Of a DNA stretch of 64,000 nt, positions 767 to 57,720 are shown piece after piece. Each line of letters opens with the position of its first letter. The stretch's first letter is position 1. The stretch comes from Bryopsis sp. KO-2023 (Eukaryota; Chlorophyta; Ulvophyceae; Bryopsidales; Bryopsidaceae). The stretch is taken from contig BSYQ01000006.1 in NCBI GenBank assembly GCA_030272585.1, positions 5,233,001-5,297,000 on the forward strand, read 5' to 3'. Made by a program: the position numbers and the translations under genes. The notes under the pieces were generated by a model. That model was not told the origin of the DNA. It did no database searches and was given only the letters and a program-made list of their open reading frames with translations.

Positions 767-1045
767 CACTATGGGAAAACCCGCTCTGTGCGGGGTAGTA
801 AAATCACCGTCGATTTCCGCCGAAAACTGGAGTCGCGAAAACCGACGCGACAGAGAGAGGGAATGGTAGGAAACACCTGGGTTCGACTCCCAGGCATTCC
901 CGTCACGATCTGGGGCGGAAAAACGTAGTCGCTGGCGAAGTCGTCAGCGACGGATGAAACCGCGGAAATCAACCCCGCACAGTCAACCCCGCATAGGACA
1001 GTAACCCCGTACAGGACTCTGTGCGGGGTTACTATCCTGTGCGGG
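767..1045. repeat. Dispersed GTGCGGGG repeat fragments
   Basis: The segment near 767-800 (GCACTATGGGAAA followed by CGCTCTGTGCGGGG) matches, inverted, the right edge of the repeat field near 4955-4995. More CTGTGCGGGG/CCCCGCACAG units, in both orientations, lie at 970-1045. This is evidently a small fragment of the same repeat family as the 4.4-5.0 kb fold-back. No protein is supported. Confidence 0.5.
859..901 (+). ncRNA. Minimal tRNA-like hairpin (acceptor plus T-arm)
   Basis: GGGAATG (859-865) pairs with CATTCCC (895-901) as a 7-bp acceptor-like stem. It stacks directly on a 6-bp T-arm (876-881 with 889-894) whose 7-nt loop TTCGACT fits the T-loop/B-box pattern. Only 10 nt separate the two 5' strands, so there is no D or anticodon arm. 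A 6-bp hairpin GTCGCG/CGCGAC lies just upstream (832-851). No A-rich or U-rich tract precedes it. It could be a tRNA-derived remnant, an RNase P substrate-like element, or chance. Confidence 0.35.
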
Positions 1046-6512: not shown

Positions 6513-6852
6513 AGGATAGATAGTGGCTGGTGGAAGAGGGATTCAAAAGAGTGCTTTTATTGGGTCCTATGACTGGCTTGCTTTAGAGAGTGCCGGGGTG
6601 TACTGAACATCTCCATGATCTTTGTGACCATCCAAAAATCAATCGCTCAAACACGAGCTAAGAAGTTGCGGAATGCTAATGCATGCAACTGAACAGAAGG
6701 GCACCCATCAACCCAAATATAAATCGAACGAAACATACCCAAAGATTTCTTTCACAAGTAAGACCCCCCAAAAAGATTTTAATATGCTTTTTTCTTCCTT
6801 TTTAATTTCAAACTCAAGATGGCAGAGTTAGATGTGTTTCACAGCAAGATCT

Positions 6853-6903
6853 GTCAGGTCAGTGCTCATCCTGGGAGCACCCACGGTTCGAGTCCGTGCT
6901 GGC
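6853..6903 (+). ncRNA. Three-stem tRNA-like element
   Basis: GTCAG (6853-6857) can pair with CTGGC (6899-6903, one U.G). GTGCTC (6862-6867) pairs with GAGCAC (6875-6880) around a 7-nt loop. CACGG (6882-6886) pairs with CCGTG (6894-6898) around TTCGAGT (6887-6893), a canonical T loop/B box. TTTT follows at once (6904-6907), as at a Pol III terminator. The acceptor is short (5 bp) and there is no D arm, so this is not a standard tRNA. A tRNA pseudogene, SINE head or mascRNA-like fold are alternatives. Confidence 0.4.
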
Positions 6904-6907
6904 TTTT

Positions 6908-8021
6908 GATTGAAACCTCCCATCAACAAGCCCATCAACACCACCGTCTATTTGAGTGAAAACGCATTCATAACAAGCAACCACTGAAGGACCTTCATTT
7001 TTTTCCTTTCTGATTCAAAAGTGGATTGTGGGGGAGAGAAGAGATTTATAATTGCACACATATGATTTTCCACGGGGCGACATTGAGCTGCAGAATTAGT
7101 TTTTTATTTTGATGTTTGTTTTTTTTCTCTACTCGATGGACGCAAGAGAGAGAATTTTGCATTTGTTAATTTTTGAATGAAGAAGAAATGAAAAGGAACT
7201 TCTGTCTCTGCTTTGTATTTTTTTATTCCATGTGTTCAGAAAACATGGAGGAGTGTGGATTTTATGGTAATATTGCCAACTTTTTTTTTACAGTGGCGGA
7301 GATGTGTGATGCGAGGCATTTCAGAAAATGGATAAATAGAACTGCATGATTCTCACTTTAAGTAATTTCTAAAGTTTGAAAGTTTGTTAGGGGTTGAACA
7401 ATGACCGGATATTGTGTTTGATTCTTATTTCAATTTTCCAAGTGCTTAATCCATCTTTTGCACCGATTTTGGTCACTGGGTTTGAGATGATGTTGATCAA
7501 AGCTTGGATTGTACCAGTCTGATTTTGGATGGGTGTGGAGAGGAGATGGGGGAAAAGTAATATTAATAATTAGTAATACTATGAATTTTCAATTCGTTCG
7601 GAAAAAGGAAACACGAGGGACAAATTTCTCGCTTGTCTTTTGCTTTCTGGATGAAATAGAGGTGAGCAATGAAAAAAAAAATTGCTTTGTGAGTAATGGG
7701 GATACGATGTCCTCAGGATCTCCAGTCATTTTGCTGCCTATCCAGGAAATCTTGCAGTAAATCAATAAATAAATCTTATTTCTCTTCAGATACCCGTGGC
7801 CTTCCCATGTCCATTCTGAGCCAGACCCAAAATCTCAGATGCTGTCGTACAAGATTCAACAGTGCATGTCGTACAATTGAAAAATGCTCAATCCATTCCC
7901 CCCACATTGATCGTACAGTACCCAACCCCAAAAGAAAACGCCACTGCCACCAACCGCATCCGTTTCCGTTGCCCGTTTTTCCGACTGTCCTTCGTAAGCA
8001 GCACTCCTATCGTTTTCCCAG
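6908..8021. other. Intergenic, desaturase upstream region
   Basis: No gene recognised. The stretch is A/T-rich with many T runs. A 3' splice-site-like TTTTCCCAG lies immediately before the desaturase ATG, suggesting a 5'-UTR intron. Confidence 0.4.
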
Positions 8022-12470: not shown

Positions 12471-13069
12471 CAAACAGTGGAAGGGGGTCTCCCTGCACAC
12501 AACCCATCATTTCGCTCAGCCTGCAATGCATGAATTTCTCATCCTCTTCAACACAAACACATGCATGGCGACCAAGATAAAACAGGGGCTGATACCCAGT
12601 GTCTATCTGGAATTCACATCTGTTGTCACAGGTCAGCCTTTTCGACCAGGCAAAAAACCTACACTTGAGTGGTGGCCTACTGAGTCTTGCCCTTGACTGA
12701 CATTTGCCATGGAAGTGGAGCTAACATAGGTTGCACATGCAATCACATCAAAAAATCAAGCTGCGCTCTTTGTCTTTTGTTGATTTTTTTTACCAACTTG
12801 GAAGTTTTGCTGTCACTGAAGCAAAGTACTTAAAGCATCATTACCACTTGCAGAAAAAAATATGGGGGAGATGTGAGAGTCCAACAACTCACTTTCTCAG
12901 CTCCTCAGGTCTCCCCCCCAACCTGTACATATGATCCACACACAAAGGATGGTCATGAAAAAAAGCAAGACACCCAACGACTTCAACACACACAAAATCT
13001 CTCAACTTCTCATGGTTGCTTACCTCATCACCATCGGACATCCGCTGCAAGGAAACTCAGTCATCATGT

Positions 13070-13117
13070 AAGGCATGGGGGTATCGAACCCCCTTGGTGT
13101 CCAAACACACATGCCTT
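13070..13117 (-). ncRNA. mascRNA-like tRNA-like structure at MPVS-A 3' end
   Basis: On the minus strand AAGGCAU (13,117-13,111) pairs with AUGCCUU (13,076-13,070) as a 7-bp acceptor. T stem GGGGG (13,093-13,089) pairs with CCCCC (13,081-13,077), and the 7-nt T loop is UUCGAUA (13,088-13,082). The 17 nt between hold at most one small hairpin (GUGU, loop UUGG, ACAC). The acceptor stacks directly on the T stem, as in tRNA. It lies in the MPVS-A 3' flank right after an A-rich tract, the arrangement of mascRNA at the end of MALAT1, where RNase P cuts at the tRNA-like 5' end. CCA is not encoded. No AATAAA was noticed nearby. Confidence 0.7.
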
Positions 13118-13163
13118 TTTCTTTTTTTACCAGAAAGAAACCCATGAAGGGAAAAAAAACTGG
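13116..13163 (-). promoter_or_regulatory. Candidate triple-helix ENE in MPVS-A 3' UTR
   Basis: In minus-strand order: lower stem CCAG (13,163-13,160), U8 (13,159-13,152), upper hairpin CCC/GGG with loop UUCAU (13,151-13,141), second U-rich strand UUUCUUU (13,140-13,134), lower stem CUGG (13,133-13,130), one U, then an A-rich tract of seven A, G, five A (13,128-13,116) running into the tRNA-like element. UUUCUUU is exactly complementary to the AAAGAAA inside the A tract, and U8 can supply the Hoogsteen strand. This matches the U-rich/U-rich/A-rich plan of the MALAT1 and MENbeta ENEs. The middle triple would be U.G-C where MALAT1 has C+.G-C. Confidence 0.65.
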
Positions 13164-13176
13164 CCCCTCCTCCCCC

Positions 13177-14994
13177 CTAGGAAGCCATGAGCTGCTTCAT
13201 GGCTCGGCGGAGGCGGATCTTCTCCGGCGAAAATGACATGCCACTGTCGTCGGAGTCATCCTGGGGTGGGGGGGGAGGAGGGGATTTCCTCCGGGTCTTG
13301 GTGCGGGTCTTGGACTTGGCGGAGAGTTTTGTGAGGGCCTGGGTGCGTTGTTGACCTGAAACAAAAACAAAGAAATCAGATCCCTGAATTTTTTGCACTC
13401 TTTCAGATGCGCATCGATCCACCATTTGATAATCACAGGCAACTCCATATGATGTTCAACTCAAAATTCAGCCTGCCATGCAGAATAAGTAATGATGTAA
13501 ACACACTGATTTTCACTGGGATTCATGAGCATCCTTACGTTTCGACCCAAAATTCAGTCTGCCATGCAGAATAAGCAACGATGTAAACACACTGATTTTC
13601 ACTGGGATTCATGAGCATCCTTACGTTTCGACCGCGAAGGACTCGGCGTGGAGGGGGCTGGGGGAGGTGAGCTGGGGGCAGCTGGGGGTGGGCACGGTTT
13701 GGCATCAGAAGCTGCAGATAGAAACATAAATTTCATAGATGAACACCATTAAGAAATTTTTGAACACACAGCAAAGCATTTTATGATTGTCTACCATCCA
13801 CATATATACGATTGGGTGCATCAGGTGTGGATAAGAACTGTACCCTGGGGAAGTGGGGGGGGCGGAGGCTGGGTGGTTGTGCGGACTGGTGGTGGTGAGG
13901 GAGCAGGGCCAGGTGTGGGTGCCGGGGGATTTGCCTTTGGGGGAGGGATCTGTGCATGTTGCACTTCTGCAGTCACCACAGTAATACAAACTGAGAATAT
14001 TTCTTTTGAAAGTGCTCCAAGGGTTCAATTTTTCATATTTTTGCATTGGAAGGCCTGCTCTGAAGAATGTAATGCATCGACATTTCGTGAAAATTATGCT
14101 TAGTAATCCAAAAAGTTTCGAACTGTTCCAAACTGTTAAGGAATTACCCAAGGAAATCACTCAAAGAATCCACTGTGCGCTACATTAAAAATACAAATGA
14201 GCATTGTACGAATTTCTATTACTCCATTGAAATCAACCCACCATTCTGGGATGAGTCTTGGGGAGCGATTCCTGGTGCAGTGGAAGGTGCAGGTGTCAAT
14301 GTAGCAGCAGGTGGGGGTGTAGGTGGGGGTGCAGGTGCAGGTAGGGGTGCAGGTGCAGGTGCAGGTGCAGGTGCAGGTGCAGGTGCAGGTGCAGGTGCAG
14401 GTAGGGGGGTGGGTGTCCATGTGGGTGGCGGTGTGGGCGGCAGTGTGGATGCAAGCATGGAAGGGGCATATCGGGCTTGGCCAGAAAAGAACACGAAGTC
14501 AGGTCCATAGCATCTGTCGCACGATCGACGAAGAGTGACAGCAGCACCCACTCGATTCAGGAAGCGTAGGAGGAAGAAGAATAAAATTGATGGTTGACTC
14601 ACGCTTTTTCTTGATCTTCTTGCGCTGGGGCTCCACGTCGGGCATCAGATCAATATCCCGCGTGATGGCGACGTTGCGGTACTGGGATTTCAGGCGGTTG
14701 GAGTAGACCTTCGTGGGTTTGGCGTGCGGTCCAAGTAAACGCCTTGGTGTCCTTCTTGCTCTCGCCTTAAAGAACCGGCGATCTGCGCGGGTATACGCTG
14801 AAAAAAGGAAACCAAAAAACTGCAATCAAATTGGATTTTCATGCATACGATGCATCCAAATACAACACACGAAAAACAACACAAAAAACACACAACTGGA
14901 AGTAACAAGGACAAAGGTCACACTCACATGGCCACCCGTCTCCCACTATCAGCGAGAAAGAAAGCGCGGATAACCTTTTGGGAGAGACTGGCAT
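13177..14994 (-). CDS. Small basic Pro/Ala-rich protein, copy A (MPVS-A)
   Basis: Minus-strand multi-exon gene. It starts at ATG 14,994 (MPVSPKRLSALSF, then GDGWP). Exon 2 (about 14,798-14,605) reads SYTRADRRFFKARARRTPRR and KSQYRNVAITRDIDLMPDVE, ending in KKIKKK. Several Pro-rich exons follow (about 14,500-14,245, 13,970-13,840 and 13,716-13,625). The last exon (13,358-13,177) ends with Lys/Arg-Pro, an acidic SDDS patch, FSPEKIRLRRAMKQLMAS and a TAG stop. A CAGGTG hexamer run (about 14,330-14,403) encodes an (AP)n tract. Composition suggests a nuclear, nucleic-acid-associated protein, but I recognise no domain. The paralogue at 54.2-55.8 kb keeps the exon structure. Its 3' flank carries the triplex/tRNA-like element. 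Confidence 0.7.
13462..13633. repeat. 86-bp tandem duplication containing a splice donor
   Basis: Copies 13,462-13,547 and 13,548-13,633 differ at only a few positions. Each contains, on the minus strand, GGTCGAAAC followed by GTAAGGAT, the exon end plus 5' splice site of MPVS-A. The downstream duplicate donor lies in the intron as a decoy. Copy B (54.5 kb) has one copy. Confidence 0.85.
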
Positions 14995-15833
14995 GGTGGT
15001 GATTGCTGGTTCGACAGTGCTTGCCTGGTTCGAAAGATGCTTGCCCAGTTAGACTCTTGAGCGCGAGGGTTGTGATAGAGCACGGTGGGTTTTTATGCTG
15101 TGGAGCAAAAGGATGGCTGTTGGCTGTTGGATGATGCGTTGTGGCAGGACAGGTCGTGGCACTCGGAACACCACAGTTTTTTGAGTGGCGATGTATTTCG
15201 ACGTATTGCCCCAAAGTCGTGTTTGCTTGCAAAACATATTTGGAGCGCTTCTAGGTGAGGTTGGTTTCGTTCTCTCCCTTTGGCACCTTGTATGATGAAA
15301 GTGCTTTTTTCGTCCGGCTCTTTGTTGCTTGATGAGCTGTTTTCACGAAGGAGGACGCACTGAGAAGAGTAAAAGAGCGAAACGAGGTAACAGTGTGCAA
15401 CACATCTCTGGTTGCATAGAGACGGTTCGGGTGGAAGGAGCACGAGCACGGAAGAAAACGAACGAGTTGTGTGTAAAGTGCTTCTAGAAGATCTTCTTTC
15501 GCAGGTTTCTTCTCTTGGGAGGGCTCTACGTGGAGGGGCCTTTCCGAACCGCCGTAAGGAGCGCAAGGGGAAAGCGCTGATGTGTTCAGGAGTGTGCTCT
15601 GTGCGTGAGTTGTTTCGGGACGGAAGGATAAACAGTTGCGTTCGCGTGCGTTGCTGCCTCTTACGGTTGACAGGTCCGGTTGACAGGTTCAAGCCATTTT
15701 CACAAAAGTAAGAAACTCCGGCGAGTGAAAGGAGACAGCAGAATGGTGCTTGAGATGGAAAGGTAAGAACTGGAACTGGTTGTGGAAGATGTGTTGTTGA
15801 CCGACAGTTGCTGGGCTTGCGTTTGGAGGGTTA
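14995..15833. promoter_or_regulatory. MPVS-A upstream region
   Basis: About 0.8 kb upstream of the MPVS-A ATG is alignable to 55,814-56,570 upstream of MPVS-B. Shared blocks include TTGTGATAGAGCACGGTGGG, CAGGAGTGTGCTCTGTGCGTG and GTGTTGTTGACCGACAGTT. Conservation between divergent paralogues suggests promoter/5'-UTR content; no TATA box was assigned. Confidence 0.4.
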
Positions 15834-16229
15834 ACCCTAATTAACCATAATTAACCATAATTATGGCTATGATATTGATACTTCTGAATTTCCAGGCATT
15901 CCCCCAGCCCAAACACTTAGGCATTCCAATTTAAAACTTACATTCCAGTCCCCAACCTCTCCACCCTGCTGTACCTCGATCCAAAAAGAATAACCAAACA
16001 AAACAAAAGAGGACAAACGACACCCTACAAATGTGAAAGAATGGCATAAACAAACACAAAAAAGAAATAAGAAATAAAGGAACCAAATTAAAACAAAAAA
16101 TCCTAGGCTTCCACATGTACAAAAAATAAAGCAATAATGCACAAGGCCTTCTTTTTGCTTTGGCTAGGTTGGATGGAAGGGGATCAAAACAGAATTGATC
16201 AAAGAAAAAAAATCGACGAATGAATGACA

Positions 16230-16971
16230 CTACAGTGCTGATAAAATCTTGGCGGGTTTCGGGAACAGCAAGTGCTGCTCTGCTGTTTTCTTCTTGGCAA
16301 GCCACTCTTTGTGTGCTGATTCGAAAAATTGCATGAGAGTGTCTTCCATCCAGGCTTGCCCAAAGGGCCACAGTCCTTGCAGGAAAGCAACATGGCCGCC
16401 TCTGGATGTTTTGGCCAGTGCAGTCATCGGATTCAGCAGGGCCTCCGCGTATGGCAAATCCCTAAGGCAACCCCCACCCCCATGTCAGACAGGAAAACAA
16501 GCCGAAATGCTGACTGCATGGGCGCTGGTTCCAGCAGAATAGGAACAAACAGAAATTCCAGTTGTGAAGCAAACGATTAAAAAAATACGACCCTCTTGAT
16601 CGGCGGATGGATCGGGGGAAAGAAGTGAGGTCAAGGTGCGTGAGTTTCGCTACCTCTTTCCTATTTCCATTGCTTGTCCCTGGAGCATTTTCTTTTTTTT
16701 GTTTTGTTTGAAAAAGACGCCACCTACCCAATGAAGGGGTCATCTTCCGACACCAAAATCAGCGAGTTTGTTTGTATGCTAGGAATGTGGTTTCGACTGG
16801 AGCCCATATCTCGATACTCTGCAATGGAAGGCAAGTCGTAAACTTGCACAATCGTGGCTTCCTCGAAATCTCTCAGAGTTCGAACCTGACTGACGGTATC
16901 TTCGTCAACTCTGGGATGCGGTCCATACTGCTCCTTGTTTTCTTTTGCATATTGCTTCAGTCTATGACACA

Positions 16972-17004
<33 letters not shown>

Positions 17005-18995
17005 CTTCTGAGTTGGGGTTTGTGTATTTTGCAGGAATGCTGCCTCAAGAGAGGGTGAAAAAATGTGCCCACTGGTTGGCCCACCTATATGCCAGGATAA
17101 GATTGAAGAGGTAAGGTATCGACCAAGGCTTTTCGATGTTTTCCTGATTCGAGTGCATGCAGCAGGGGCAGCTGACTAATCCTGCAGCTTCCACTTGGCT
17201 TCCTGGGCCCCCAGATTTTATCCGTGCATCGGAGTCCCCCAAGTATTTACACAGCATCAAACTGCCCAGTGAGTAAGATGCTACGAAAAGGGGGGCTGCA
17301 GAAAATCTCCTGAAATAAGAGTGCACAATCATATATCAATATCAAAGGCGCACATCACTCATTTGCATAGTGGACGGGCTGCATGGGGCGATTGCCTTGA
17401 TGTAACAAGTTTGGAATCAACATCAAAATGTCAATGGATGTATATATATCCATTTAAAAAGCAAAAGGTCCTTCACTTTTTGTCTTCTTTTTCTAAAAGC
17501 ACGTTACACATATTAAAAAAAATTCAAAACAAGGGCAACTTTTCGGGGGAAATGCTTGCCTTTTGATGTGGTTCACCACTGCTTCCAGATCTTCAGTTTC
17601 TGTCACGCAGTATCCCTTGTGCGATGTGTGAGGCACACCGTTGCAGCCCCGGTAATTGAAAACCACCGACCTCCAGCCATGATTTCTGGCAGCGGTGCAC
17701 ATCCACCTACAATAGCCCTCCTGGCTCCCACCTTAGTTCAATTAGGACATAATTTTGAGTAAAAGAAATCTCACCACAGACCCACTGATATGAAAAAACA
17801 TAGGGAAAAAGTTGGTTTGAGATTAGATTCCATATTCCCGAAGCTGCCAAGTGAGGATCCTGATATTTATTCAGGGAAGCATTATAAAATTAATACGTTA
17901 TACCACCCTTTTGCATCGAGTCCTTCTTCGGTATACAATAGAATACAAAATAAATGACCGTTTGTGATTTCAAAAATGAAGAATTTCATCCTTTTGCAAT
18001 TCCCCACCTGTGAGTCCATGCAAGACCAACACAATTGGGGTTTCTGGTCCCCATTTACTTGAGTTTGCACTATCCTTGAACCAATCCAGACCCACAGTGC
18101 CCCCATCAGCAAATCTCAGCAACTCACGTTCATACACATTCCCTCCAATACGGCGAATAACTACGGAAAAAAAAACACCACAAAATTAATAATTGAAATG
18201 ACTCGATCGCAGGTGCAGTTGTTTCTCCCCCACGTCGATTATAAAAGATTCTGTTCAAAAAGATTCAACAGTGATTCAACAGGCGTCGGCGCCTGCATTC
18301 TTTTATTGTTACTTTTGCCTCATGTTCAGCATTCTTGACCACCGAGTCAAACAAGGGGCCATTCATTTTGGCATTTTTTTTCTTGTTGGGTTTGAATGGG
18401 TAGAAGTCCAATTGGTGTTTGTTTGCTCAAAAAACACAAAAACTCCACAGAGGATTGGTGGAATACATATATGTATATATATATATATATATATATTGGG
18501 GATTATCCACAGTGGTCAGACCTCCTTTTTCAATCTTCACACAAATTCAACCTGAGCAAATTCCCTCAAAAAAAATCGAATTGAAAAAATTGAAATCGCA
18601 TCAAGAATTTCCTTTGAGCGCATCTGATTCAAGCGTCGCAACACCTCACCCCCCGCGACAGTTTGAAGGTGCGAAAAGACGAGCCATGGCGTCGGCCTGT
18701 AAGGTTTCCACAAATTCGGCACCCCAGTCTTGAGCAGCTCTTTCAATCGACCTTCGCTGACGAACACGCGCGGAGGGCAACAAGCTTTCGTGAAATACCA
18801 CCTTCAAAACAAATACAAAAAAGAGAGAAAAATAAAACAAATAAACGTCAGTAACGACTCTTTCGACGAGACTTGCCACGTGAATCGCTTTTTCGACCAG
18901 CTGTGGATAGAGGTCAGGAATTCTCACCAAGCGTAGAGCGACGATAAGCTGGCGACGGCCGCTCCGTAATATAACGTTCTATCTTTACGTAGCAT
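16230..18995 (-). CDS. ABHD1/3 (YheT-type) alpha/beta hydrolase, intact copy
   Basis: Minus-strand gene with about eight exons. ATG 18,995 opens a short exon (MLRKDRTLYYGAAVASLSSLYAW, split here: hydrophobic anchor residues 9-23), then a PYRPTPWLVFSHLQT exon (about 18,780-18,625), VVIRRIGGNVYERELLRFAD with LVLHGL (about 18,160-18,010), and WRSVVFNYRGCNG (about 17,710-17,563). The nucleophile exon SYSLGSLMLCKYLG (about 17,310-17,230) has Ser in SxSLG, the first Gly of GxSxG being Ser. The Asp exon has VSEDDPF (about 16,965-16,735) and the His exon SRGGHVAF (about 16,457-16,232), ending with TAG at 16,232-16,230. Family members are membrane-anchored lipid hydrolases; ABHD3 cleaves medium-chain phosphatidylcholines. 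The full triad order S-D-H is present. Truncated relatives lie at 5.35-6.05 and 56.6-57.7 kb. Confidence 0.85.
16970..17002. repeat. (AC)n microsatellite
   Basis: About 16 AC units lie immediately upstream (on the minus strand, as a GT tract) of the hydrolase Asp exon. The tract may overlap its intron acceptor region. Confidence 0.9.
18467..18497. repeat. (TA)n microsatellite
   Basis: An AT/TA dinucleotide tract in an intron of the intact hydrolase gene. Similar tracts occur at about 39,178-39,200 and 45,117-45,136. Confidence 0.9.
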
Positions 18996-25620: not shown

Positions 25621-28600
25621 ATGGGGAAGAGAAAAGTAAGGAGAGCTTCCACTTATATTTTCAATGAAGCTACCGGCGAGACAGAGGAAGCACTTGAGCA
25701 ATATACGCCGCATATTATGGATCCACCTGATATTCCAACATCAGTAGAACATACCGATGCGATCGATCCTTTAGAGGATGGATATTCTCGCCAACTGATG
25801 GACAAGGAGAGCTGTCCTATTGTCCAGAAATGTGCAGAGGATAAAACAATAACATTCTGTTCCCCACAATGGGAAGAGGGTGTGCTGTCAACCAAACGCT
25901 TTCATTTTACAACTCTTCGATGGAGGGATTCCGGTGGCGAACTTTATTCTTATTGTGATTGTGGAGATGGGGAAGGAATTGTTGGAGAACGGGCTTATGG
26001 ACCGAAGTGCCTCCACAAAGATGATGGGCCTTTTGCCCACTGCCCATGCGCCCAAGCGATTATAGAGGCATTATCCCTGACCAGAAAAACATTTCTGGAG
26101 TACCTAAGAAATGGAGCCCAGACTGCCCTTGTTGAGCATTCTTCTGGGGTTCTTTTCAACGAGCTGCGGATCCACGGAAAAAAGCATTTGGCTGTGAAAC
26201 CTGGAAAAGGACAGTGGGGGCTTGTGGTGCACTATGATGCGACATCAGCCAAGGCTCCATTGTGCCTGACATGCAGGAGACACAAGCATTCTTGCGAACA
26301 CGTGGGGTGTTTGGAAGTGGAGCCGGAGATTGGGCAATTATCGGATACAGAGTTTGATAACCTACTGAAAAAGTATGTAGACCCGGGGACGAAAACACGG
26401 AGACTACAATGCAAGACCACTCAACAGATTCCAGAAAATATTTGGGAAAATGAGGTATTGGCTTCACGGCTGAGAAATGAAGTACCTTTACCAGGACAGG
26501 TGGTTGCAAGAATGGAAGAGTGTGGCTGTGAGATGTGCAACTGGGAGGCAAGTTTCGTTTCATGCACTATCTTTGGAGCGACGTCTTTTGTAACGAGCGA
26601 ACTTCAATCCCTGAAATGCAAAAATTGTGGTGAAGTTCGGAACGCTGATGGGGGTGATGTTGGGGTTCTGAACTTCAACAATCGAATTGCTTTCTGTTGG
26701 AGCTTGCTGCAAAAATATTCTGTGGAGATGATGCAAGGTCAAACCTTCCACTCTTTTGTGAAGAATATGCTGGAATGCTACAAAATGGCATCGTGTTGCA
26801 TCGATGACCTACCTTGGACGTTTGAATATCTTCGAGCATCTTTCCAAGATTCCTGGTTTGACTACGTGTCACTGCAGAAAATAAATTACAAAGCTGCCTT
26901 AAACTGCTGTGCCGCCCCCACTCTGGTTGCGGATGGACTGATGTTAGCCTATAAAGCTCATCGGTGTAATGTGAAGAGCTTTGCAGGCCCAAGCGATGAT
27001 GAAGAACCCCGCATGGGATCACAATTCGCGGACAGGGTTATGATAAGAAAAAAGAGCATTCGAGATGCTTTGTTTTCGTTCACTGGTGGCACACCAAGTG
27101 GTCGGTACGGAAACGGAACGGGTCTCTCCAGCGTGGACCATGTTGGATTGATGGAAGCACTGCAAAATGAAAACCTTGGGTTTCTGAATGTGCTTTGTCG
27201 GGAAGCGGTGATGTGCGGTGGCGTCATGTACGCTGTGGATCACTTCAGGCTGATGCTCTTCAATTTATCGACTACCGCGCCTTGTTGTCGAATTCTGCCC
27301 AATGATGTTATCAACGTTATCGAGGGCATCTTAGAGGCGAGATCATTGGTGATCTCCTGCGAGCACGAGAGACAACTGGCTAGTTGCTCTCCAGATATGC
27401 TTGAATTTTTGCAGACCATAAATGCAAGGGGAGAAGTTCCTTCTGAAATATGGGAAATGTTATCCCATATGGTGTCGAGGACCAAAAGGGCTTTTATCCC
27501 ATGCACAAGTCGTGCTTGTGACATGGAGGAAGGTCTCTTGGATACTTCCACCGGCTTCCCGGAAGAGGATGATGTTTTCTTTTTGAAAACAGGACAACTC
27601 TTCGGGGATAACCACTGCTTAAAGCGCAGGCTGCATCGCTATAAAGCAGACAATAACAAGGGGGGTGGGTCACAAGATGATTGCGCGAAGTCCAAATACG
27701 TCCCACGACAACTCACCCCAGGTTCGAAAATAATTAATTCAAGAAAATTGTTTGCATTACATACAATCATGTTTTGAAAAAACCAATGAGCAACGAAACA
27801 AAGTCTCACAAAAAAACACCATCTTCCTTTCGCTTTTACTTGGTTGTCTCGCTAACCCTTACTATATGATCCTGGCAAGACTCAGACACCTAACTAACCT
27901 TTTGTCTCACTTTTCTGATCTCGTTAACGTGTTATTTAGGAACCTTTATCTTATTCTGCGCAACCCACGAGATCGCTGTTGGGTTTGCTGTGATGAGTCA
28001 TTCGGAGAGTCCTCAAACCCCGTTTGAGATTCTGTTTTCACGGTGGAATGGTTTGCAAGGTAAACCATGAATAATATGAATTTGACGACATTCACAGTTA
28101 AGAGTTTCCAAATCGGAATTTCTTTTTTTTTTGGAAAAAGACAAAATCCACTCCCGTCGCAATCCCCGACTCGTCATACTCAGCATGAATTGAGTTGACT
28201 AAGCCTCACAATATACCTCGTGCATGACCCACTAATCACGGCGTATTTACTGTTGCATCTCTCTTACCACGGTCTCAACGCAAATTCAACCTTGTCCCCT
28301 TACTCTCTCCTCAACCACGTTTCCTTTCTCTTGTCCTTAGATTATAACACTCACTCTTTCTCTTTCACTTATCCTCATAAAAGGGTGATTCAGTTTAAAT
28401 TACTTCCTAGCATCTTTCACACAATACTCATGCAAACAATATTTCACCCTTTGTTTTGGGAATCATATAGTCTTTTAATTTTTTTTTGTGATTTACTAAC
28501 ACTTTCACATCTTTCTTTCAACAGCGTTTTGTTATGACAACGCTTGTAATTTGGAGAAATACGCGCTCAACCGCGAGCCAGAACACTTCCAAGGTGTCCG

Positions 28601-30616: not shown

Positions 30617-33600
30617 CTACCTGATCCCAGCTCTCCTCTTATAATCAGCCAGGATCTCTGATGCATTCAATAAATTGTCTTGGGGTTCCCAAGTTGCTTC
30701 ACTAAGTGGATACCCCTTCCAGACTACTAAAAATCTCCTTTTTCTTCCTGAAAACTTATGTCTTACTACAGCCTCAACTTCAAATTCTTCTTCTCCCTCA
30801 GAATCTAATTCTGCTGGAGGTGCCATTACCTCCCTAGGAAACTTAGAACTCTCTTGAAGTTTTCTCAACTTTGATACATGAAATACAGGATGTAATTTCC
30901 ATCCATCTGGTAACACCAATCTATATGCCACAGATCCCACTGCAGCAGCAATAACAAAAGGTCCAATATATCTTCTTCTGATTTTCACTGGAATATGTTT
31001 CAAGACTGCTAAATTCAATGTCTTTGTGGAGAGCAACACCTTTTCTCCCACTTGAAACTGTACATCCCTCCTTTTCTTATTAGCTTGCTGCCTCATCTTC
31101 TCTTGAGCTGTCTTATATCTGTTTTTGGCATCATTGATGACTTCCTGCATGTGTGATATCATTTCCTGAACTGACTCTGCTTCTGCTTGAGCTTTTCCAG
31201 CCAGTAGATCTCCTGGCAGCTGAGGATGCACCCCATACATCAAGTAGAAGGGGCTGTATCCTGTAGATGTGTGTACAGCATTGTTGGCTGCAAATTCAGC
31301 CATCCCTAATCCCTGCATCCATGTCTCTGGATGCTCTTCCACATAGGGTCTTAGAAAGTTTTCTAATGTTCTGATGCTGACTTCACTTTGTCCATCTGTT
31401 TGAGGATGGAAGGCTGTGGACATTCTCACTTTAGTGCCCACACATCTCATTAGCTCCTGCCAAAATTTACTAGCAAATCTAGTATCCCTATCACTGATTA
31501 TCACACTGGGAATCCCATGATTCCTGAAGATGTGATCAAAGAATATCCTTGCATACCCAGGTGCATCTATTGTTTTACTGCAGGGTATGAACTTTACCAT
31601 CTTAGTCAATCTATCAACAAATACTGCAATTGAATCAAATCCTTCAACAGAGGGTAAATCAGTCACTAGATCAGTAGTGATCTGATCCCATTTCTTATCA
31701 GCCACTGGAATAGGTTGCAGCAATCCCTTCTGAGCTCTTAACTCAGGTTTCATTTGCTGGCAAACCTCACATGTCCTGACATATTCCTGGACATCCTTTT
31801 TCATATTATTCCAGTAGTATTTCCTGGACATCAGCTCCAGAGTTCTCTCTATTCCCAGATGTCCAGAGATTTGATTATCATGTCCTTCTGTAAGGACTTT
31901 CATCCTCAGTTCCTGAGGTACCCATAACTTCATGAGTCCATCCTGAGTTTGATAAATCAATAACCCTGATTCATTGATTCCATATCCTGGAATTCTCTCT
32001 CCATCCAGTATTTGATTATAGATGTCTTTGATTTCAACATCTGCCAGTGTTGCTTGTTCCCAGAGTGTAATCTCTTCTGTGCTAGGCTGTAATGAACTCA
32101 CTACTTTGAGTTCCTGCTCTGCTGGAAGACTTCTTGATAGTGCATCAGCAACCAGATTCAGTTTCCCTTGGATGTACTGAATTTTTGGTTTGATGCTGAG
32201 GAAATGTCCTGCTCTCAGCCATCTGGCTTGAGGCCTTGACATCATCTTTTGATCCATGAAGTTTGTTAAAGGCTGGTGGTCTGTAAAGACTGTGACTTCT
32301 CCTGGGCAGCCCTCTAAATAGTGCCTCCACTGCATCAAGCAGTAGGCTATTCCCAGGAGTTCCCTTTCATATACTGAGTAATTCTGTTCTGACTTTGATA
32401 ATCTCCTACTGCAGAAGGCTATGGGCTGTAATCCAGAGCCATGATCCTGACAGAGAACTCCTCCAGTTGCTTCCCCAGATGCATCACTAATCACAGTGTA
32501 ATCCTTTACTGGATTAGGATGGATCAGCACTGGTTTCCCCATCAATGCAGTTTTAAGTGATTGAAAAGCTTGTTCCTGAGCAGATCCCCACTCCCACATG
32601 ACATCCTTCTTAGTTAAGTCATGCAGAGGGCCTGCTATCTTTGCAAAGTCTGGGATGAATCTTCTATAGAAGGAAACCATCCCCAGAAAACTCCTGACAT
32701 CTGTAACTGTCTTTAAGGGCTTCCAATCCCTGATTGCCTTAACTTTCACATCCATTGCTGAGATCCCCTTTTCACTTAACCAAAATCCACAGAAATCTGT
32801 TTCCTTCACACAGATTTCACTTTTGGTGGCCTTTGCAAATAGACTATACTTCTGTAGCCTGGCTAAGACTGCTGCCAGATGTTCTACATGCTCAGAGATG
32901 CTTCTGGAATAGATCAGAAGGTCATCAATGAAGATCAGCACAAATAAATCCAACATATCCTTGAATATGTCATTCACCATGTTCATATATTGTGCTGGAG
33001 CATTAGTAAGTCCAAATGAAAGCACTTTGAACTGATAGTGTCCAAATCTGCTTCTAAAGGCAGTCTTAGGCCTGTCCTCTTCCCTTAGAGGCATCTGCCA
33101 GTAGCCTGATCTCAGGTCAATCTTAGTGAAATATTTAGCCCCATGCACCCTGTCAATCATCTCCTCTGGTAAGGGCAGAGGGTACCTATTTTTGATGGTT
33201 TTCTTATTGAGCCATCTGTAATCCAGGCACATCCTGAGCCCTCCATCTTTCTTAGGGACAAACAGGATGGGTGCCCCAAATGGTGACTGTGATGGTTCTA
33301 TGAAATCCATCTCCAACAGGTAATCTAACTGTCTTTTAACCTCATCTAACTCAAGAGGAGACAGTTTGTATAGGGGTCTATACATGGGTTCTGTACCCTC
33401 CTCCAGATCAATCCTGAATTCATGACCCAGTCTGACAGGAGGTACACCCTTAGGCAAATCCTTTGCAAACACTTTTCTGTACTGAGTCAGTACTTCTTTA
33501 ATCCTGGGATCCATATCCTCCTGCAGGATTTTCTGTAGATCATCCCCTTCCCTTTGTTCTGGGATTGTTTCTACTCCAGTCTTTGATTCATCCTCTGGCC

Positions 33601-34408
33601 TAATCACCACCATGATGATGTGTTTGATTTCCCCTTTTTCTATCTGTCTTTTGATTCTGTCACTAGAACAAAAGGAAAGTTCTGTAGCTCCAGTGGGTTT
33701 GAGCTGATATTCAGGCATCACTGAGAGTGGTAATTTTACACTCTTTTTGCCCTTGTTGACTGTGATTATTCCTGACTTAAAATCCACTTTGGGATTGTAG
33801 TGTATGAGCCAGGGCAATCCCAGCAGGATTGGGTGATTACTGTCTGGAAAGACATCAGCATCAAATGAGAGCTGGATCTTTCCACAGACAAATGGGATGC
33901 CATAACATCTCCCCACTGATTTCCTTTCTGTACCATCTAGAAACTTAACAAGAGTTTCTTGTGGTTTGTATTGCAGTCCCAGTTCCTTGACTGCATCCAT
34001 GCTAATATAATTAGCAGTGGATCCTGTATCAATGTATGCTGTAGCTTTCTTTGCACCAATAAACCCTGCCAGTTCATATCCTCTATATGCTGCTGTAGCC
34101 TGAGCTACTGCAGTCTGAACTGGTTCCTTTCCCTCAACATTTCCTTCCACTCTAGTGGGTAAACTCACAGTGGCCTCTGTTTGTTTATCCACTCTCTTTT
34201 GAGACTGCTTTTTCTTTTGAATTAACACTCCTGGAGTGACCCCATCCAGTGTGTATGCTTCCTGTTCTGTTGCAATAGGGGCTGCAACCACAGGTGTCTC
34301 TTGAACACCATCATTTAGTGAGGCTGGTGTTTTTGTAGTGGGTTCTTTCATTTCAATATCATCTGGAGGCTTAGCTGACCCAACACTAGCCTCCTCTTTT
34401 AGTTTCCC
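30617..34408 (-). CDS. pol: Chromovirus Pol: protease, RT, RNase H, integrase, chromodomain
   Basis: Open from before 34,486 to the stop at 30,617, and probably expressed by -1 frameshift at 34,408-34,402. Domains in order: aspartic protease (YIDTGSTANYIS); reverse transcriptase with KIDLRSGYWQMPL and the active site LIFIDDLLIYS; RNase H (DASGEATGGVL, YERELLGI); integrase HHCC finger (GHLGIERTL to CEVCQQMK) and DDE core (TDLVTDLP, SDRDTRFAS, HPQTDGQSE); and a C-terminal chromodomain (RRFLVVWKGYPLSEATWEP). The chromodomain defines the chromovirus lineage and is thought to steer integration to marked chromatin. About 1,260 residues after the frameshift, normal for the family, with no interruption seen. 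Confidence 0.95.
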   Translation of the reverse strand, partial: GKLKEEASVGSAKPPDDIEMKEPTTKTPASLNDGVQETPVVAAPIATEQEAYTLDGVTPGVLIQKKKQSQKRVDKQTEATVSLPTRVEGNVEGKEPVQTAVAQATAAYRGYELAGFIGAKKATAYIDTGSTANYISMDAVKELGLQYKPQETLVKFLDGTERKSVGRCYGIPFVCGKIQLSFDADVFPDSNHPILLGLPWLIHYNPKVDFKSGIITVNKGKKSVKLPLSVMPEYQLKPTGATELSFCSSDRIKRQIEKGEIKHIIMVVIRPEDESKTGVETIPEQREGDDLQKILQEDMDPRIKEVLTQYRKVFAKDLPKGVPPVRLGHEFRIDLEEGTEPMYRPLYKLSPLELDEVKRQLDYLLEMDFIEPSQSPFGAPILFVPKKDGGLRMCLDYRWLNKKTIKNRYPLPLPEEMIDRVHGAKYFTKIDLRSGYWQMPLREEDRPKTAFRSRFGHYQFKVLSFGLTNAPAQYMNMVNDIFKDMLDLFVLIFIDDLLIYSRSISEHVEHLAAVLARLQKYSLFAKATKSEICVKETDFCGFWLSEKGISAMDVKVKAIRDWKPLKTVTDVRSFLGMVSFYRRFIPDFAKIAGPLHDLTKKDVMWEWGSAQEQAFQSLKTALMGKPVLIHPNPVKDYTVISDASGEATGGVLCQDHGSGLQPIAFCSRRLSKSEQNYSVYERELLGIAYCLMQWRHYLEGCPGEVTVFTDHQPLTNFMDQKMMSRPQARWLRAGHFLSIKPKIQYIQGKLNLVADALSRSLPAEQELKVVSSLQPSTEEITLWEQATLADVEIKDIYNQILDGERIPGYGINESGLLIYQTQDGLMKLWVPQELRMKVLTEGHDNQISGHLGIERTLELMSRKYYWNNMKKDVQEYVRTCEVCQQMKPELRAQKGLLQPIPVADKKWDQITTDLVTDLPSVEGFDSIAVFVDRLTKMVKFIPCSKTIDAPGYARIFFDHIFRNHGIPSVIISDRDTRFASKFWQELMRCVGTKVRMSTAFHPQTDGQSEVSIRTLENFLRPYVEEHPETWMQGLGMAEFAANNAVHTSTGYSPFYLMYGVHPQLPGDLLAGKAQAEAESVQEMISHMQEVINDAKNRYKTAQEKMRQQANKKRRDVQFQVGEKVLLSTKTLNLAVLKHIPVKIRRRYIGPFVIAAAVGSVAYRLVLPDGWKLHPVFHVSKLRKLQESSKFPREVMAPPAELDSEGEEEFEVEAVVRHKFSGRKRRFLVVWKGYPLSEATWEPQDNLLNASEILADYKRRAGIR
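34365..34408 (-). promoter_or_regulatory. -1 ribosomal frameshift signal between gag and pol
   Basis: Slippery heptamer G GGA AAC (34,408-34,402, in gag frame) lies directly before the gag TAA. After a 7-nt spacer comes a stem GGAGGCT (34,394-34,388) with AGCCTCC (34,371-34,365), 7 perfect pairs, extendable by AG/CU. The -1 frame continues as GKLKEEASVGSAK in pol. Confidence 0.85.
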
Positions 34409-53400: not shown

Positions 53401-54048
53401 TTGACCTTTCTCTGCATAGCGCTGGTCGTTCCTTTTCCCATCATCCAAATCCCCCATAGAGTAACGAAGGGACATCCCTATGTCTTACTTTCATTTTGTG
53501 CACCACCAGACTTGCAGTGTTGGCAGTGCTATATCAATATTGGAGTCTTGCAGCAGTTTTGGCAATAATATTTATTATGATTGCAACCAGCCAGTTTACC
53601 TCAAGTGGATTTTTCAAGAAAAGAAGCTGTTGCTTCCAAGTGGAGGGTAAAGATGTAGAAGTCTCCCTGCACACAACCCATCATTTCAGTCTGCCTGCAA
53701 GGCATGAATTTCTCATCCTCTTCAACACAAACACATGCATGGTAGATAAAACAGGGGCTGATATTTGGTGTCTACTGGGACTTCACCTCTGCTGGCACAG
53801 GGCAGCCTACTCCATCAGCAAAAAAAAAAGTGGTGCCCTTGACTGACATTTGCCATGGATATGGTGCTAAAATAGGTTGGGCATGTGATCCCATTAAATC
53901 GAGCCACAGCGCTTGCCCCCTGTTGATTATTTTACCAAGTTGGAAGACTTGATGTCACTGAAAAGCAAAGAAATATGGGAGAGGTTGCAACAACTTACTT
54001 TATCAGGCTCCTCGCTACCCTTCATTTATCTTCCCCCACTACCAACAT

Positions 54049-54098
54049 GTAAGGCATGGGGGTATCGAACCCCCTTGGTGTCCAAACACACATGCCTT
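54049..54098 (-). ncRNA. mascRNA-like tRNA-like structure at MPVS-B 3' end
   Basis: Identical to the copy-A element: acceptor AAGGCAU/AUGCCUU, T stem GGGGG/CCCCC, T loop UUCGAUA. The 81-nt interval 54,046-54,126 equals 13,065-13,145 with no change, whereas sequence beyond CATGT diverges. Confidence 0.7.
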
Positions 54099-54145
54099 TT
54101 TCTTTTTTTACCAGAAAGAAACCCATAAAGGGAAAAAAAAACTGA
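54097..54145 (-). promoter_or_regulatory. Candidate triple-helix ENE in MPVS-B 3' UTR
   Basis: Same plan as copy A with tolerated changes: lower stem UCAG with CUGG (C-G replaced by U.G), U9 instead of U8, and hairpin loop UUUAU instead of UUCAU. The second U strand (UUUCUUU) and the A-rich tract are unchanged. The differences fall where the model predicts freedom. Confidence 0.65.
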
Positions 54146-54159
54146 CCCCTCCTCCCCCC

Positions 54160-55813
54160 CTAGGAGGCCATGAGCAGCTTCATGGCGCGGCGGAGGCGGA
54201 TCTTGTCCGGCGAAAAGGACATCCCACTATCATCACTGTCATCTTGTGGAGGGGGGGGAGGAGGGGACTTCCTCCGGGTCTTGGTAGAGGTCTTGGACTT
54301 CGCGGAGAGTTTCATGAGGGCCTGGGTTCGTTGTTGGCCTGATAAAAAAAAAAAAAAAAAAAGGTCAGAATCCCAGTGAGAATTATTGTGTTGACATTGT
54401 TGCTGATTCTAAATTCTGAAATGAATATCGTAACCTATATGCATGTCCCTATGATTTCCAAATGGTGGGGCCAGCAGTCCAACTGAATCAAGTGAAACAT
54501 CCAGGGATACACGATCAGCCTTACGTCGAGACCGCGAAGGACTTGGCGTGGAGGGGGCTGGAGGTGAGCTTGGAGCAGCTGGGAGTGGTGTGGTTGGGGA
54601 TGGTTTGGCATCAGCTGCAGATAGAAACATAGATTTCATTGATGAACAACATTAAGCAAATTTGAACACACAACAAAGCATTTCCTGATTTTCTGCCATC
54701 CATGTTGGATGCATCAGGTGTGGATAAGAACTGTACCATGGACAGGGTGTGGAGCTTGGGGCGCTGTGCGGATGGGGGGTGGTGAGGCAGCAGGGCCAGC
54801 AGTGGATGGTGGGGGATTTGCCTTGGGGGGAGGGATTTCTGGTGTAGGGGAAGGCGGCGAGATCACGGGAGATATCGGTGGAGCTGGAAAATAAATCAAT
54901 CAGACTCAGTTCAATTATAATTCTGAAAATAAATCTGCATGCATGCACACCTCACATGAGACGAGAGTGCGACTGTTTTTCAAGCATCTTCTCAAAGTTA
55001 CTGCACATTAGATTTAATGAACCCACCAGTTGGAGATGGGCTGTCGGAGGTCGTTGCAGGTGCTGGTGCAGGTGCTGGTGCTGGTCCCAACATGGGGACA
55101 TGTGGGGGTGATGGTGCTGGTGCAGGTGTGGGTGTCCATGTGGCTGCAGGGGCAGGTGGGGGTGCCATGGTCGGTGGGGGTCCCCATGTGGGCGGCAGTG
55201 TGGGCGGCGGTGTGGGCGGCAGTGTGGGTGCAAGCATCGAGGGGGCAGATCGGGCTTTGCCAGAAAGAAAAACGAAGTCAGTTCCATTGCATCTATCGCT
55301 CGATCGAGGACGAGTGGCAGGAACACTCACTCGCTTGATCCAGGAAGTGTAGAACGAAGACAAGGACGGGAGGAACCTAATGACTGACTCACCCTTTTTT
55401 TTCTTGCAGGGGGGGCATTGCATCTCGACGTCGGGCATGAGGCCCAGGTAGCGCGTGACGGCGACGTTCAAGTACTGGGACTTGAGGCGACTGGAGTAGA
55501 TTTTCATGGGCTTGGAGAGGGGAGCGAGGATTTTTCTGGGAGTTCTTCGGCACCTTGTCTGGAAGTATGATTTATCCTGTCTGGTATAACCTGGAATTTA
55601 ACAGCCAGAAAATAAATTGATGCCATTTCCACAAATAGGATGAATTATACTTTGCTCACGACGAGAAAGCGACACAACTGAGCAAGCAACACAACGTGAC
55701 ACAAAAAGCACAACTTGGAAAAAGCAAGAATATAATTCACACTCACTGGGCCATCCGTCCCCAGTAATACAAGAGAAAGATAAGGCGGCTAATCTCTTCT
55801 TGGAGACTGGCAT
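54160..55813 (-). CDS. Small basic Pro/Ala-rich protein, copy B (MPVS-B)
   Basis: Paralogue of MPVS-A with the same exon plan. ATG 55,813 opens MPVSKKRLAALSFSCITGDG. Exon 2 (about 55,593-55,395) reads SYTRQDKSYFQTRCRRTPRK and KSQYLNVAVTRYLGLMPDVE. Pro-rich exons follow (about 55,345-55,025, 54,880-54,730, 54,615-54,525). The final exon (54,340-54,160) ends FSPDKIRLRRAMKLLMAS with a TAG stop. By eye the exon-2 basic domain is roughly two-thirds identical to copy A. No known domain. The 3' flank carries the conserved triplex/tRNA-like element. Confidence 0.65.
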
Positions 55814-56589
55814 GATTGCTGACTCGTGCAGGTTGCAAGGTGCAGGCTGTTGTAAGATCGAAAGTGCTTGCCCAGTTAGACTCTTGAGCGCGAGGGTTGT
55901 GATAGAGCACGGTGGGTTTTTATGCTGTGGAGCGATAGGTAGTGGATGACGCGGAGTGGCAGGACACAACCACATTTTTAACTGGGGATGTATTTCGACG
56001 TATTGCCTGTAAGTCGTGTTTGCTTGTAACACATTCGCAGCGCTTCTAGACGAGGCTCTTTGCTGCTCCCGCGAGGAGTTGTTTTCACGAAGGAGGGCGA
56101 ATCGACAAGTTCTCGAGAACACTGATCAACTACGAGTGACACACAGACACGGTTCCAGTGTAAGGAGCACGGCACGGAAGAAAACGAACGAGTTGTGTGT
56201 GTAAAGTGCTCTTTTTTTCCGCAGGTTTCACTTCTTGGGAGGGCTGTACGTGGACTGGCCTTTCCGAACCGCCGTAAGGAGCGGAAGGGGATGGTGTTGA
56301 TGTGTTCAGGAGTGTGCTCTGTGCGTGAGTTGTTTCGGGACGGAAGGATGAACAGTTGCGTTCGTGTGCGTTGCTGCCTCTTACGGTTTCAAAAAGGAAC
56401 AGGAGAGCGTTCCGACCCAGTTTTTTCTTTGAGCCATTTTCACAAAAAAGAAGAAACTCCAGCGAGTAAAGGGACAGAGCAGAATGGGGTGCTTGTGATG
56501 GAAAGGTAAGAACTGCTTGTAAAAGGTGTGTTGTTGACCGACAGTTCCTGGGCTTGCGTTTGGAGGGTTGTGGCTGTGTGAATGGCACT

Positions 56590-57720
56590 TCGAAATTTTT
56601 GATTGCTTCAGTCTATGGTACAAACACATCCATCTTCTGAGTTGAGGTTTATGTGATTCGTTCACAGGAATGCTGCCACAAGAAGGGGGAAGAAATGTGT
56701 CTGCAGCTTCTACTGGACTTTCCAAGATTTTATCTGTGCATTGGAGTCCCACAAGTGCTTACAAAACATCAAACTACCCAGTGAGTAGGATGCCACAAAA
56801 GGGGGGGCTGCAGAAAATCCTGAATTAAGAGTACACAATCAATGGCATATCAATTTCAGGAGCAAAAAGGTTTTGACATTTTTCTGCTGTTGCTTTTTTC
56901 TTCCAAAAGCATATCCTCCCTAGCCACCATCCAAAAATCCAGGCCAATGCTTCGTTGTGCTGAAACAAACTTTCAATTGTTTTTCTATTGCAAATATAAA
57001 AAAATAACCTAGAAATCCTTGTGGAAATGTTTCCCTTTTGATGTGGTTCACCACTGTTTCTAGATCTTGGGTTTCTGTCACACAGTATCCCTTGTGCGAT
57101 GTGTGAGGCACACCATTACAGCCCCGGTAGTTGAAAACCACCGATCTCCAGCCGTGATTTCTGGCAGCAGTGCACATCCACCTGCAATAGCCCTCCTGGC
57201 TCCCACCTTAGTTCAATTAGGAAAACATTTTGAGTGAAAGAAATATCACCACAGGCCCACTGATATGAAAAAAAGAAAGGGAGAAAGTTGGTTTGAGATT
57301 AGATTCCATATTCCAGAAGCTGCCAAGGGAGGATTCTGATATAAAATTATGAAATTAATATGTTACCACCCTCTCGCATAAAGTGCTTTTTTGGGTTAAA
57401 AAAATGAAACAAAGAATATACAATCGTTTTTGATTTTTAGAATTTCATCCTTTTTTGCAAATGTTACCTGCGAGTCCATGCAAGACCAACACGATTGGCG
57501 TTTCTGGTCCCCATTTACTTGAGTTTGCACTATCTTTGAACCAATCCAGACCCACAGTGCCACCCTCAGCAAATCTCAGCAATTCACGTTCATACAAATT
57601 CCCTCCAATACGGCGAATAACTACAGGGAAAAAAACCCACAAAATTAAAACTGGGATGACTCGATCACAGCTGCTGATTCTTTTTGTTTCTTCCAACGTC
57701 AATTATAAGCGATTCTGTTC
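56590..57720 (-). pseudogene. Truncated ABHD1/3-type hydrolase (copy B)
   Basis: Minus-strand exons VVIRRIGGNLYERELLRFAE with VLVLHGLA (about 57,622-57,470) and WMCTAARNHGWRSVVFNYRG (about 57,182-57,030) are preserved. The nucleophile exon is reduced to a fragment near 56,780, and the Asp and His exons are absent; the exon beginning HRLKQ breaks off into unrelated sequence (about 56,615). The N-terminal exons with PTPW are also missing. A non-functional relic of the gene intact at 16.2-19.0 kb. Confidence 0.75.

What the first reader, a model, noticed from the sequence alone, without database searches (positions are those of the whole stretch)
13070..13163. MALAT1-like 3' end on a protein-coding gene: triple-helix ENE plus tRNA-like element
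Seen: on the minus strand, within about 15 nt of the MPVS-A stop codon, a stem with U8 and UUUCUUU internal-loop strands is followed by an A-rich tract containing AAAGAAA (exact complement of UUUCUUU). A fold with 7-bp acceptor, 5-bp T stem and 7-nt T loop UUCGAUA then begins. Known: vertebrate MALAT1 and MENbeta end this way; RNase P cuts at the tRNA-like element and the U.A-U triple helix protects the non-polyadenylated end. Triple-helix ENEs are also described in plant and fungal transposons. Inferred: an mRNA whose 3' end may be made by RNase P and protected by a triplex, in a non-animal lineage. I know of no such natural coding gene.
Basis: partly seen in the sequence, partly recalled or inferred. 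Interest (0 to 1): 0.93.

Follow-up and report, generated by a model that had tools for sequence, protein, structure and literature searches.

The report
MALAT1-like 3' ends in green alga
Just after the stop codon of a duplicated protein-coding gene, and at dozens of other places, a green alga's genome carries the kind of 3' end that vertebrates use on the noncoding RNA MALAT1 (a triple-helix hairpin followed by a small tRNA-like piece), which suggests that natural messenger RNAs without a poly(A) tail may exist outside animals.

Summary
On the minus strand, 13 nt after the MPVS-A stop codon, lie a U-rich ENE-type hairpin, an A-rich tract and a 48-nt tRNA-like fold. The same module follows MPVS-B (54145-54051) and two MPVS paralogues outside the window. 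It is not chance: this 91-Mb genome holds at least 34 triplex-type loci in six groups. In 11 of 11 hand-annotated representatives, the U's before the C in U-strand 2 equal the A's between the tract's G and the cut site set by the 12-bp acceptor+T rule; where U-strand 1 has a C, its U's match too (7 of 7). Acceptor and T stems covary. The host is a green photosynthetic eukaryote, probably the coenocytic alga Bryopsis (inferred), and encodes a protein-only RNase P, PRORP, the likely cutting enzyme. MPVS is a real coding gene (six exons, dN/dS 0.11-0.14). Most other groups look noncoding. Best reading: MPVS mRNA ends by PRORP cleavage and a triplex protects its A-rich end. Cleavage, triplex and absence of poly(A) are inferred, not measured. 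I found no report of this module outside vertebrates or on a natural mRNA, though key surveys were not held. New variant of a known kind.

The parts
13177..14994 (-). MPVS-A coding gene; exons 14994-14928, 14797-14603, 14475-14242, exon 4 not mapped, about 13708-13625, 13355-13177 (stop TAG 13179-13177)
   Evidence: Mapped from MPVS-B by alignment; exon 4 could not be mapped and the start of exon 5 lands 3 nt off an AG. dN/dS against B 0.11 (first 82 codons) and 0.14 (exon 6).
13130..13163 (-). ENE-type hairpin of MPVS-A: stem I, U8, stem II, UUUCUUU, stem I
   Evidence: Sequence; RNAfold; annotation and pairing
13118..13128 (-). Genome-encoded A-rich tract AAAAAAAGAAA; predicted mature mRNA 3' end at 13118
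   Evidence: Sequence; complementary to UUUCUUU in 7 of 7 positions
13070..13117 (-). tRNA-like element of MPVS-A; predicted RNase P cut between 13118 and 13117, RNase Z cut after about 13070
   Evidence: 7-bp acceptor and 5-bp T stem; RNAfold z -2.80; covariation across groups
54160..55813 (-). MPVS-B coding gene; exons 55813-55747, 55590-55393, 55254-55027, 54883-54737, 54614-54525, 54338-54160; 302 aa
   Evidence: All GT-AG, in frame, one stop
54051..54145 (-). Same module after MPVS-B: ENE 54145-54111, A-tract 54109-54099, tRNA-like 54098-54051
   Evidence: DNA match 96%; covariance-model hit 54145-54048 (B was one of the five training copies); fold

Best explanation
The element is a MALAT1-type 3'-end module on a protein-coding gene of a green alga. 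MPVS is transcribed through the tRNA-like element. RNase P, here most likely PRORP, cuts before AAGGCAU, where acceptor and T stems stack to 12 bp, and RNase Z cuts after it. The freed end ...AAAGAAA-OH folds back into the ENE hairpin, pairs Watson-Crick with UUUCUUU and takes the U8 strand as Hoogsteen partner, which shields it from exonucleases. The mRNA would have a 3'UTR of about 59 nt and no poly(A) tail. Shown by sequence: anatomy, gene model, selection on the protein, register matching and stem covariation, a multi-copy family, a PRORP gene. Inferred: cleavage, the enzyme, the triplex, lack of poly(A), translation of the tail-less mRNA.
For: Full module at 13163-13070 after a real coding gene. 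Same module 13-14 nt after the stop in 4 of 4 intact MPVS copies. Homology of A and B breaks off at the end of the tRNA-like element: ENE plus A-tract 46 of 49, tRNA-like 48 of 48, next 100 nt 61 of 100. At least 34 triplex-type loci in the genome, and 23 of 42 matches to a pattern without the acceptor are real against 11 control matches. Three-strand register: U-strand 2 against A-tract 11 of 11 representatives, p 0.00036; U-strand 1 against A-tract 7 of 7, p 0.007. In group IV the acceptor is GGCGAUU and both counts rise to five, so the count follows the predicted cut site. Acceptor and T stems 98.4% paired with 16 double-change cells against 4.3 in shuffles. PRORP gene, 135.9 bits; PRORP1 of Arabidopsis cuts acceptor-T-stem hairpins (PMC4975455 abstract). 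None of the four MPVS copies has TGTAA in the next 300 nt and one has AATAAA.
Against: No RNA data. The ENE hairpin alone folds no better than shuffles (z -0.72). MPVS U-strand 1 lacks the C that would complete a C+.G-C triple. The register table is hand-annotated; a first automatic parser gave 8 of 11, p 0.03, and U-strand 1 matched in 9 of 10 elements. L062 has no stem I pairs (0 of 2) and L017 only two. Conservation between A and B may be partly gene conversion, since synonymous divergence is 0.45 in exon 6 but 2.6 in exons 1-2; A to D the module is 39 of 46 and 41 of 47. Poly(A) sites further downstream cannot be excluded.
Confidence: 0.75

Rival explanations
1. The module is a tRNA-derived mobile repeat that has spread into 3' flanks and has no role in MPVS mRNA.
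For: Group II loci share only the module, about -36 to +50, with unrelated flanks. Many copies, several in inverted pairs. Group III copies are mostly followed by T-runs as after Pol III genes.
Against: In MPVS it sits at the same spot, 13-14 nt after the stop, in 4 of 4 intact copies including the distant D. The covarying register of three strands and cut site is not expected of a dead repeat. MPVS copies have no T-run directly after the element.
Confidence: 0.1
2. The module is cut only in part of the transcripts: MPVS also makes ordinary polyadenylated mRNA from a downstream site, and the tRNA-like cut serves as a regulatory or alternative end.
For: MPVS-C has AATAAA 247 nt downstream. Alternative polyadenylation beside a tRNA-like end is described for NEAT1 (PMC12941219 passage).
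Against: TGTAA is absent in 300 nt after all four copies; AATAAA is absent after three of four. This is weak evidence, since signals of this alga are unknown to me.
Confidence: 0.1
3. The tRNA-like element is a signal for RNA transport, translation or aminoacylation and is not cut; the U- and A-rich parts are an ordinary hairpin.
For: Plant tRNA-like structures are known with such roles (recalled). The host is probably a giant coenocytic cell (inferred).
Against: Does not explain why the A count tracks the predicted cut site and the U counts, nor the conserved order hairpin, A-tract, acceptor.
Confidence: 0.04
4. Chance resemblance.
For: U-rich and A-rich runs are common in this window; the ENE alone has z -0.72.
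Against: Two matches in the window against 0.00, conserved paralogues, genome-wide excess over control, covariation.
Confidence: 0.01

Closest known systems
MALAT1 and MENbeta (long NEAT1) 3' module with mascRNA/menRNA, vertebrates
   Same: Same order: stem I, U-strand, stem II hairpin, U-strand, stem I, A-rich tract, tRNA-like element with D- and T-type arms; RNase P cut predicted at the same joint; dozens of copies in one genome as reported for anole lizards (PMC10869381 passage).
   Different: Green alga, not a vertebrate; on a translated gene; tRNA-like element of 48 nt without anticodon arm; shorter triplex (about 7 against 9 triplets in the cited text); probable cutter is PRORP; Rfam finds no match.
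ENEs of plant and fungal transposons, such as Evade of Arabidopsis
   Same: U-rich internal loops on a hairpin that can form a triplex with A's; plant-side lineage (PMC12501189 passages).
   Different: There the A's are the added poly(A) tail and no tRNA-like element follows in what I read; here the A-tract is encoded and a tRNA-like element follows.
t-elements of plant mitochondria cut by PRORP
   Same: A tRNA-like structure sets an mRNA end through PRORP (PMC10941002 passage).
   Different: Organellar and without a triplex (the latter recalled).
Replication-dependent histone mRNAs
   Same: Natural coding mRNAs without poly(A) (recalled).
   Different: Stem-loop with SLBP and a different endonuclease (recalled); no tRNA-like element or triplex.

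Membership tests
MALAT1-type 3' module | Hairpin with two U-rich strands between stem I and stem II | tested here: met
   16 of 16 hand-annotated elements match the genome sequence; stem I pairs fully in 15, L062 0 of 2
MALAT1-type 3' module | Downstream encoded A-rich tract complementary to U-strand 2 | tested here: met
   Full Watson-Crick match over the annotated length in 16 of 16, 4 to 9 pairs
MALAT1-type 3' module | C+.G-C triple interrupting U.A-U triples | tested here: inconclusive
   Register fits in 7 of 7 representatives that have a C in U-strand 1; MPVS copies have no such C
MALAT1-type 3' module | tRNA-like element directly after the A-tract | tested here: met
   Fold and covariation
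MALAT1-type 3' module | Cleavage by RNase P, no poly(A) tail, triplex formation | not testable with these tools
   Needs RNA experiments
MALAT1 orthologue (gene) | Vertebrate lncRNA locus with conserved neighbours | tested here: not met
   Green-type LHC genes and PRORP in the genome; host gene is coding
Transposon ENE that clamps a poly(A) tail | A-strand supplied by an added poly(A) tail, in a transposon transcript | tested here: not met
   A-tract is encoded; MPVS-B has no Pfam match
Ordinary tRNA gene | Four-arm tRNA recognised by a tRNA finder | tested here: not met
   ARAGORN: 0 in the window

The most novel reading that the evidence does not exclude
A green alga has independently built a second, genome-wide route of 3'-end formation for nuclear transcripts: PRORP cuts before small tRNA-like elements and U.A-U / C+.G-C triplexes replace the poly(A) tail at dozens of loci, including natural protein-coding mRNAs.
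Probability: 0.6. Interest if true: 0.95.

Novelty: new variant of a known kind. Interest (0 to 1): 0.88.

Why it matters
MALAT1 and NEAT1 are described as the only lncRNAs that use tRNA-processing machinery (PMC12941219 abstract). A plant-side occurrence on a translated gene would show that the pairing of a tRNA-like cut with a triplex cap arises repeatedly and can serve mRNAs. It would bring protein-only RNase P into nuclear 3'-end formation, and it offers natural triplexes whose length past the C+.G-C step is three, four or five, which makes triplex rules directly testable. One 3' RACE experiment can decide it.

Tried and rejected
Chance: rejected. Known tRNA or Rfam family at the element: none. 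MPVS homologues in the protein collection: none at E 0.001 for residues 1-90 (7 candidates). Viral contigs: two scans with loose patterns returned 120 and 108 stretches; I did not examine them, and loose patterns of this kind are expected to match by chance. Other groups as coding genes: open frames end near some elements, but of the 13 non-MPVS pairs compared upstream, the gaps are mostly of 1-2 nt, so I treat these hosts as probably noncoding; the two MPVS pairs also have such gaps there, because introns were included, so that test alone does not prove it. An integrase-like look of the frame before L062 found no Pfam match. Nuclear RNase P RNA: no match, but the 14 control genomes were silent too, so this says nothing. 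Group III (15 loci): hairpin and tRNA-like arms, but U-strand 2 is only UU, so not counted as triplex-forming; L043 of that group gave no model hit. A fifth MPVS-like exon on C7 has an in-frame stop and no module seen in the about 1.5 kb read after it. In one search the automatic parser counted two U's against four A's in U-strand 1 of L008; I assign that C to stem II and did not include L008 in the hand set.

Full report
Anatomy. The minus strand has, after the MPVS-A stop (13179-13177) and a 13-nt spacer: CCAG-U8-CCC-UUCAU-GGG-UUUCUUU-CUGG (13163-13130), U-A7-G-A3 (13129-13118), and AAGGCAU, a GUGU/ACAC hairpin, CAA, GGGGG-UUCGAUA-CCCCC, AUGCCUU (13117-13070). ARAGORN finds no tRNA in the window and Rfam at gathering score nothing here; with E-values up to 10 Rfam gives only weak matches. 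RNAfold returns both ENE stems and the three-arm fold, with one extra pair in the T loop; z is -2.80 for the tRNA-like part and -0.72 for the ENE hairpin.

The gene. MPVS-B (55813-54160, minus) has six exons, GT-AG throughout, in frame, 302 aa. MPVS-A follows it by alignment, except that exon 4 was not mapped and exon 5 starts 3 nt off an AG. dN/dS between A and B is 0.11 over the first 82 codons (dS 2.6, near saturation) and 0.14 over 56 codons of exon 6. The last exon occurs in five places: A, B, C, D and one on C7 with an in-frame stop and no module seen downstream. In A, B, C and D the module begins 13-14 nt after the stop. No homologue and no Pfam match were found for MPVS.

Conservation. 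Between A and B: ENE plus A-tract (54145-54097) 46 of 49, tRNA-like (54096-54049) 48 of 48, next 100 nt 61 of 100; BLAST homology ends at 13065/54046. Between A and D: 39 of 46 and 41 of 47. Gene conversion may add to the A-B figure, because exon 6 is also less diverged than exons 1-2.

The family. AAAAAGGCN{14,30}GGTTCGA has 68 matches in the genome against 34 for the reversed control. Sorted by sequence: 4 MPVS (group I), 11 group II, 15 III, 11 IV, 5 V, 2 VI, 14 units of tandem arrays of about 244 bp (VII; ten of the 14 read with flanks), and 6 without the fold. A later pattern added two loci on C17 and C18 (group VIII). tabulates 50 loci; 35 belong to groups I, II, IV, V, VI and VIII, and 34 of these keep the hairpin (L024 has lost it). 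A pattern that does not ask for the acceptor gave 42 matches against 11 for its control, 23 of them real by my reading, one new (C1:7626732, L315, with no clear stem). A covariance model from copies A-E matched all 29 loci of groups II, IV, V and VI given over its full length, E from 5.7e-13 (L005, a training copy) to 1.7e-4 (L024); E-values of this model are rough, low-scoring antisense and background matches also appear, and group VIII, C and D were not in that search.

Register test. I annotated 16 elements by hand; each string ends exactly at the cut predicted by a 7-bp acceptor plus 5-bp T stem. In the 7 of 11 that have a C in U-strand 1, the U's after it equal it too (p 0.007). L012 against L014, within group V, shows the linked change from 3/3 to 4/4; group IV keeps 5/5 with a shifted acceptor. 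An automatic parser tried first gave 8 of 11 (p 0.03) and 9 of 10 for U-strand 1. The other triplex-type loci, mostly close copies, were not annotated by hand; group VI has no G or C in register and was not counted. Group II modules are related, so these are not all independent origins, and the first pattern itself required at least five A's before GGC.

Stem covariation. On 17 typed representative tRNA-like elements, 11 pairs of acceptor and T stem are 98.4% paired; 4 pairs and 16 cells show double changes (shuffle means 1.9 and 4.3); partners slid by 1-3 columns pair in 39-66%. D-type hairpins change on both sides too (GUGU/ACAC, UUGUC/GACAA, UCGUC/GACGA), though none was found in L018 and in the tandem units, and several have only 3 bp.

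Other hosts. Group II loci on different contigs share only about -36 to +50. Upstream alignments in the other groups mostly carry 1-2-nt gaps, which points to noncoding transcripts or repeats. MPVS is the clear coding case.

Organism and enzyme. 107 exon matches to chlorophyll a/b-binding proteins, of green type by my reading of one. Contigs of 356,152 and 91,672 bp look organellar. Inflated mitochondrial genomes are reported in Bryopsidales (PMC6944098, title and start of abstract in a listing). I infer Bryopsis sp. KO-2023; unconfirmed. One PRORP gene, 135.9 bits, in a 672-aa open frame. A review states that one PRORP serves all compartments in Chlamydomonas, where the RNA form is absent (PMC10941002 passages); Arabidopsis PRORP1 cuts acceptor-T-stem hairpins and needs the T loop (PMC4975455 abstract).

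Mechanism (inferred). Transcription through the module, PRORP cut before AAGGCAU, RNase Z cut behind it, and fold-back of AAAGAAA into the hairpin, with six U.A-U triples and one U.G-C in MPVS. That reporters with a MALAT1 3' end are translated is recalled, not read here.

Known and new. Plant and fungal ENEs act with an added poly(A) tail (PMC12501189 passages). [quoted passage not shown] MALAT1 and NEAT1 are called the only lncRNAs using tRNA processing (PMC12941219 passages). The listings (several shown only in part) named no module of this kind outside vertebrates or on a natural coding gene that I could see; two earlier surveys that I looked for were not held, so absence from print is not proven.

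Noticed in passing
window 6840-6910 (+): Another compact tRNA-like fold: acceptor AGGTCAG/CTGGCTT, hairpin TGCTC-ATCCTGG-GAGCA, T arm CACGG-TTCGAGT-CCGTG; no clear ENE or A-tract before it (model hit 22 bits, E 0.083; sequence).
   Followed up: partly
window 835-905 (+): GGGAATG ... CTGGGTTCGACTCCCAG ... CATTCCC: acceptor- and T-arm-like pairing without a D hairpin.
   Followed up: no
L020 and L032 (contigs C5, C7; also C10): Tandem arrays of about 244 bp, each unit holding a compact tRNA-like element AAGGCA..TTGGG-TTCGAAT-CCCAA..TGCCTT.
   Followed up: partly
L030, L036-L038, L041-L051 (contigs C6, C8, C12): Fifteen group III loci: tRNA-like element after a CGAGAG/CTCTCG hairpin whose second U strand is only UU; L041 has the hairpin twice in tandem; T-runs follow most copies.
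   Followed up: partly
window 12501-18276 and 53675-57740 (-): MPVS-A and MPVS-B lie in a larger duplicated segment with conserved blocks upstream and downstream; a third copy lies outside the window in the opposite orientation.
   Followed up: partly
window 30617-36681 (-): Ty3-type retrotransposon frames: gag, reverse transcriptase, RNase H, integrase, chromodomain.
   Followed up: no
window 49958-50077 (+): Fragment matching bacterial-type large-subunit rRNA, 53.8 bits; perhaps an organelle insert.
   Followed up: no
window 25621-27777 (+): Frame with a CxC4 cysteine cluster associated with KDZ transposases.
   Followed up: no
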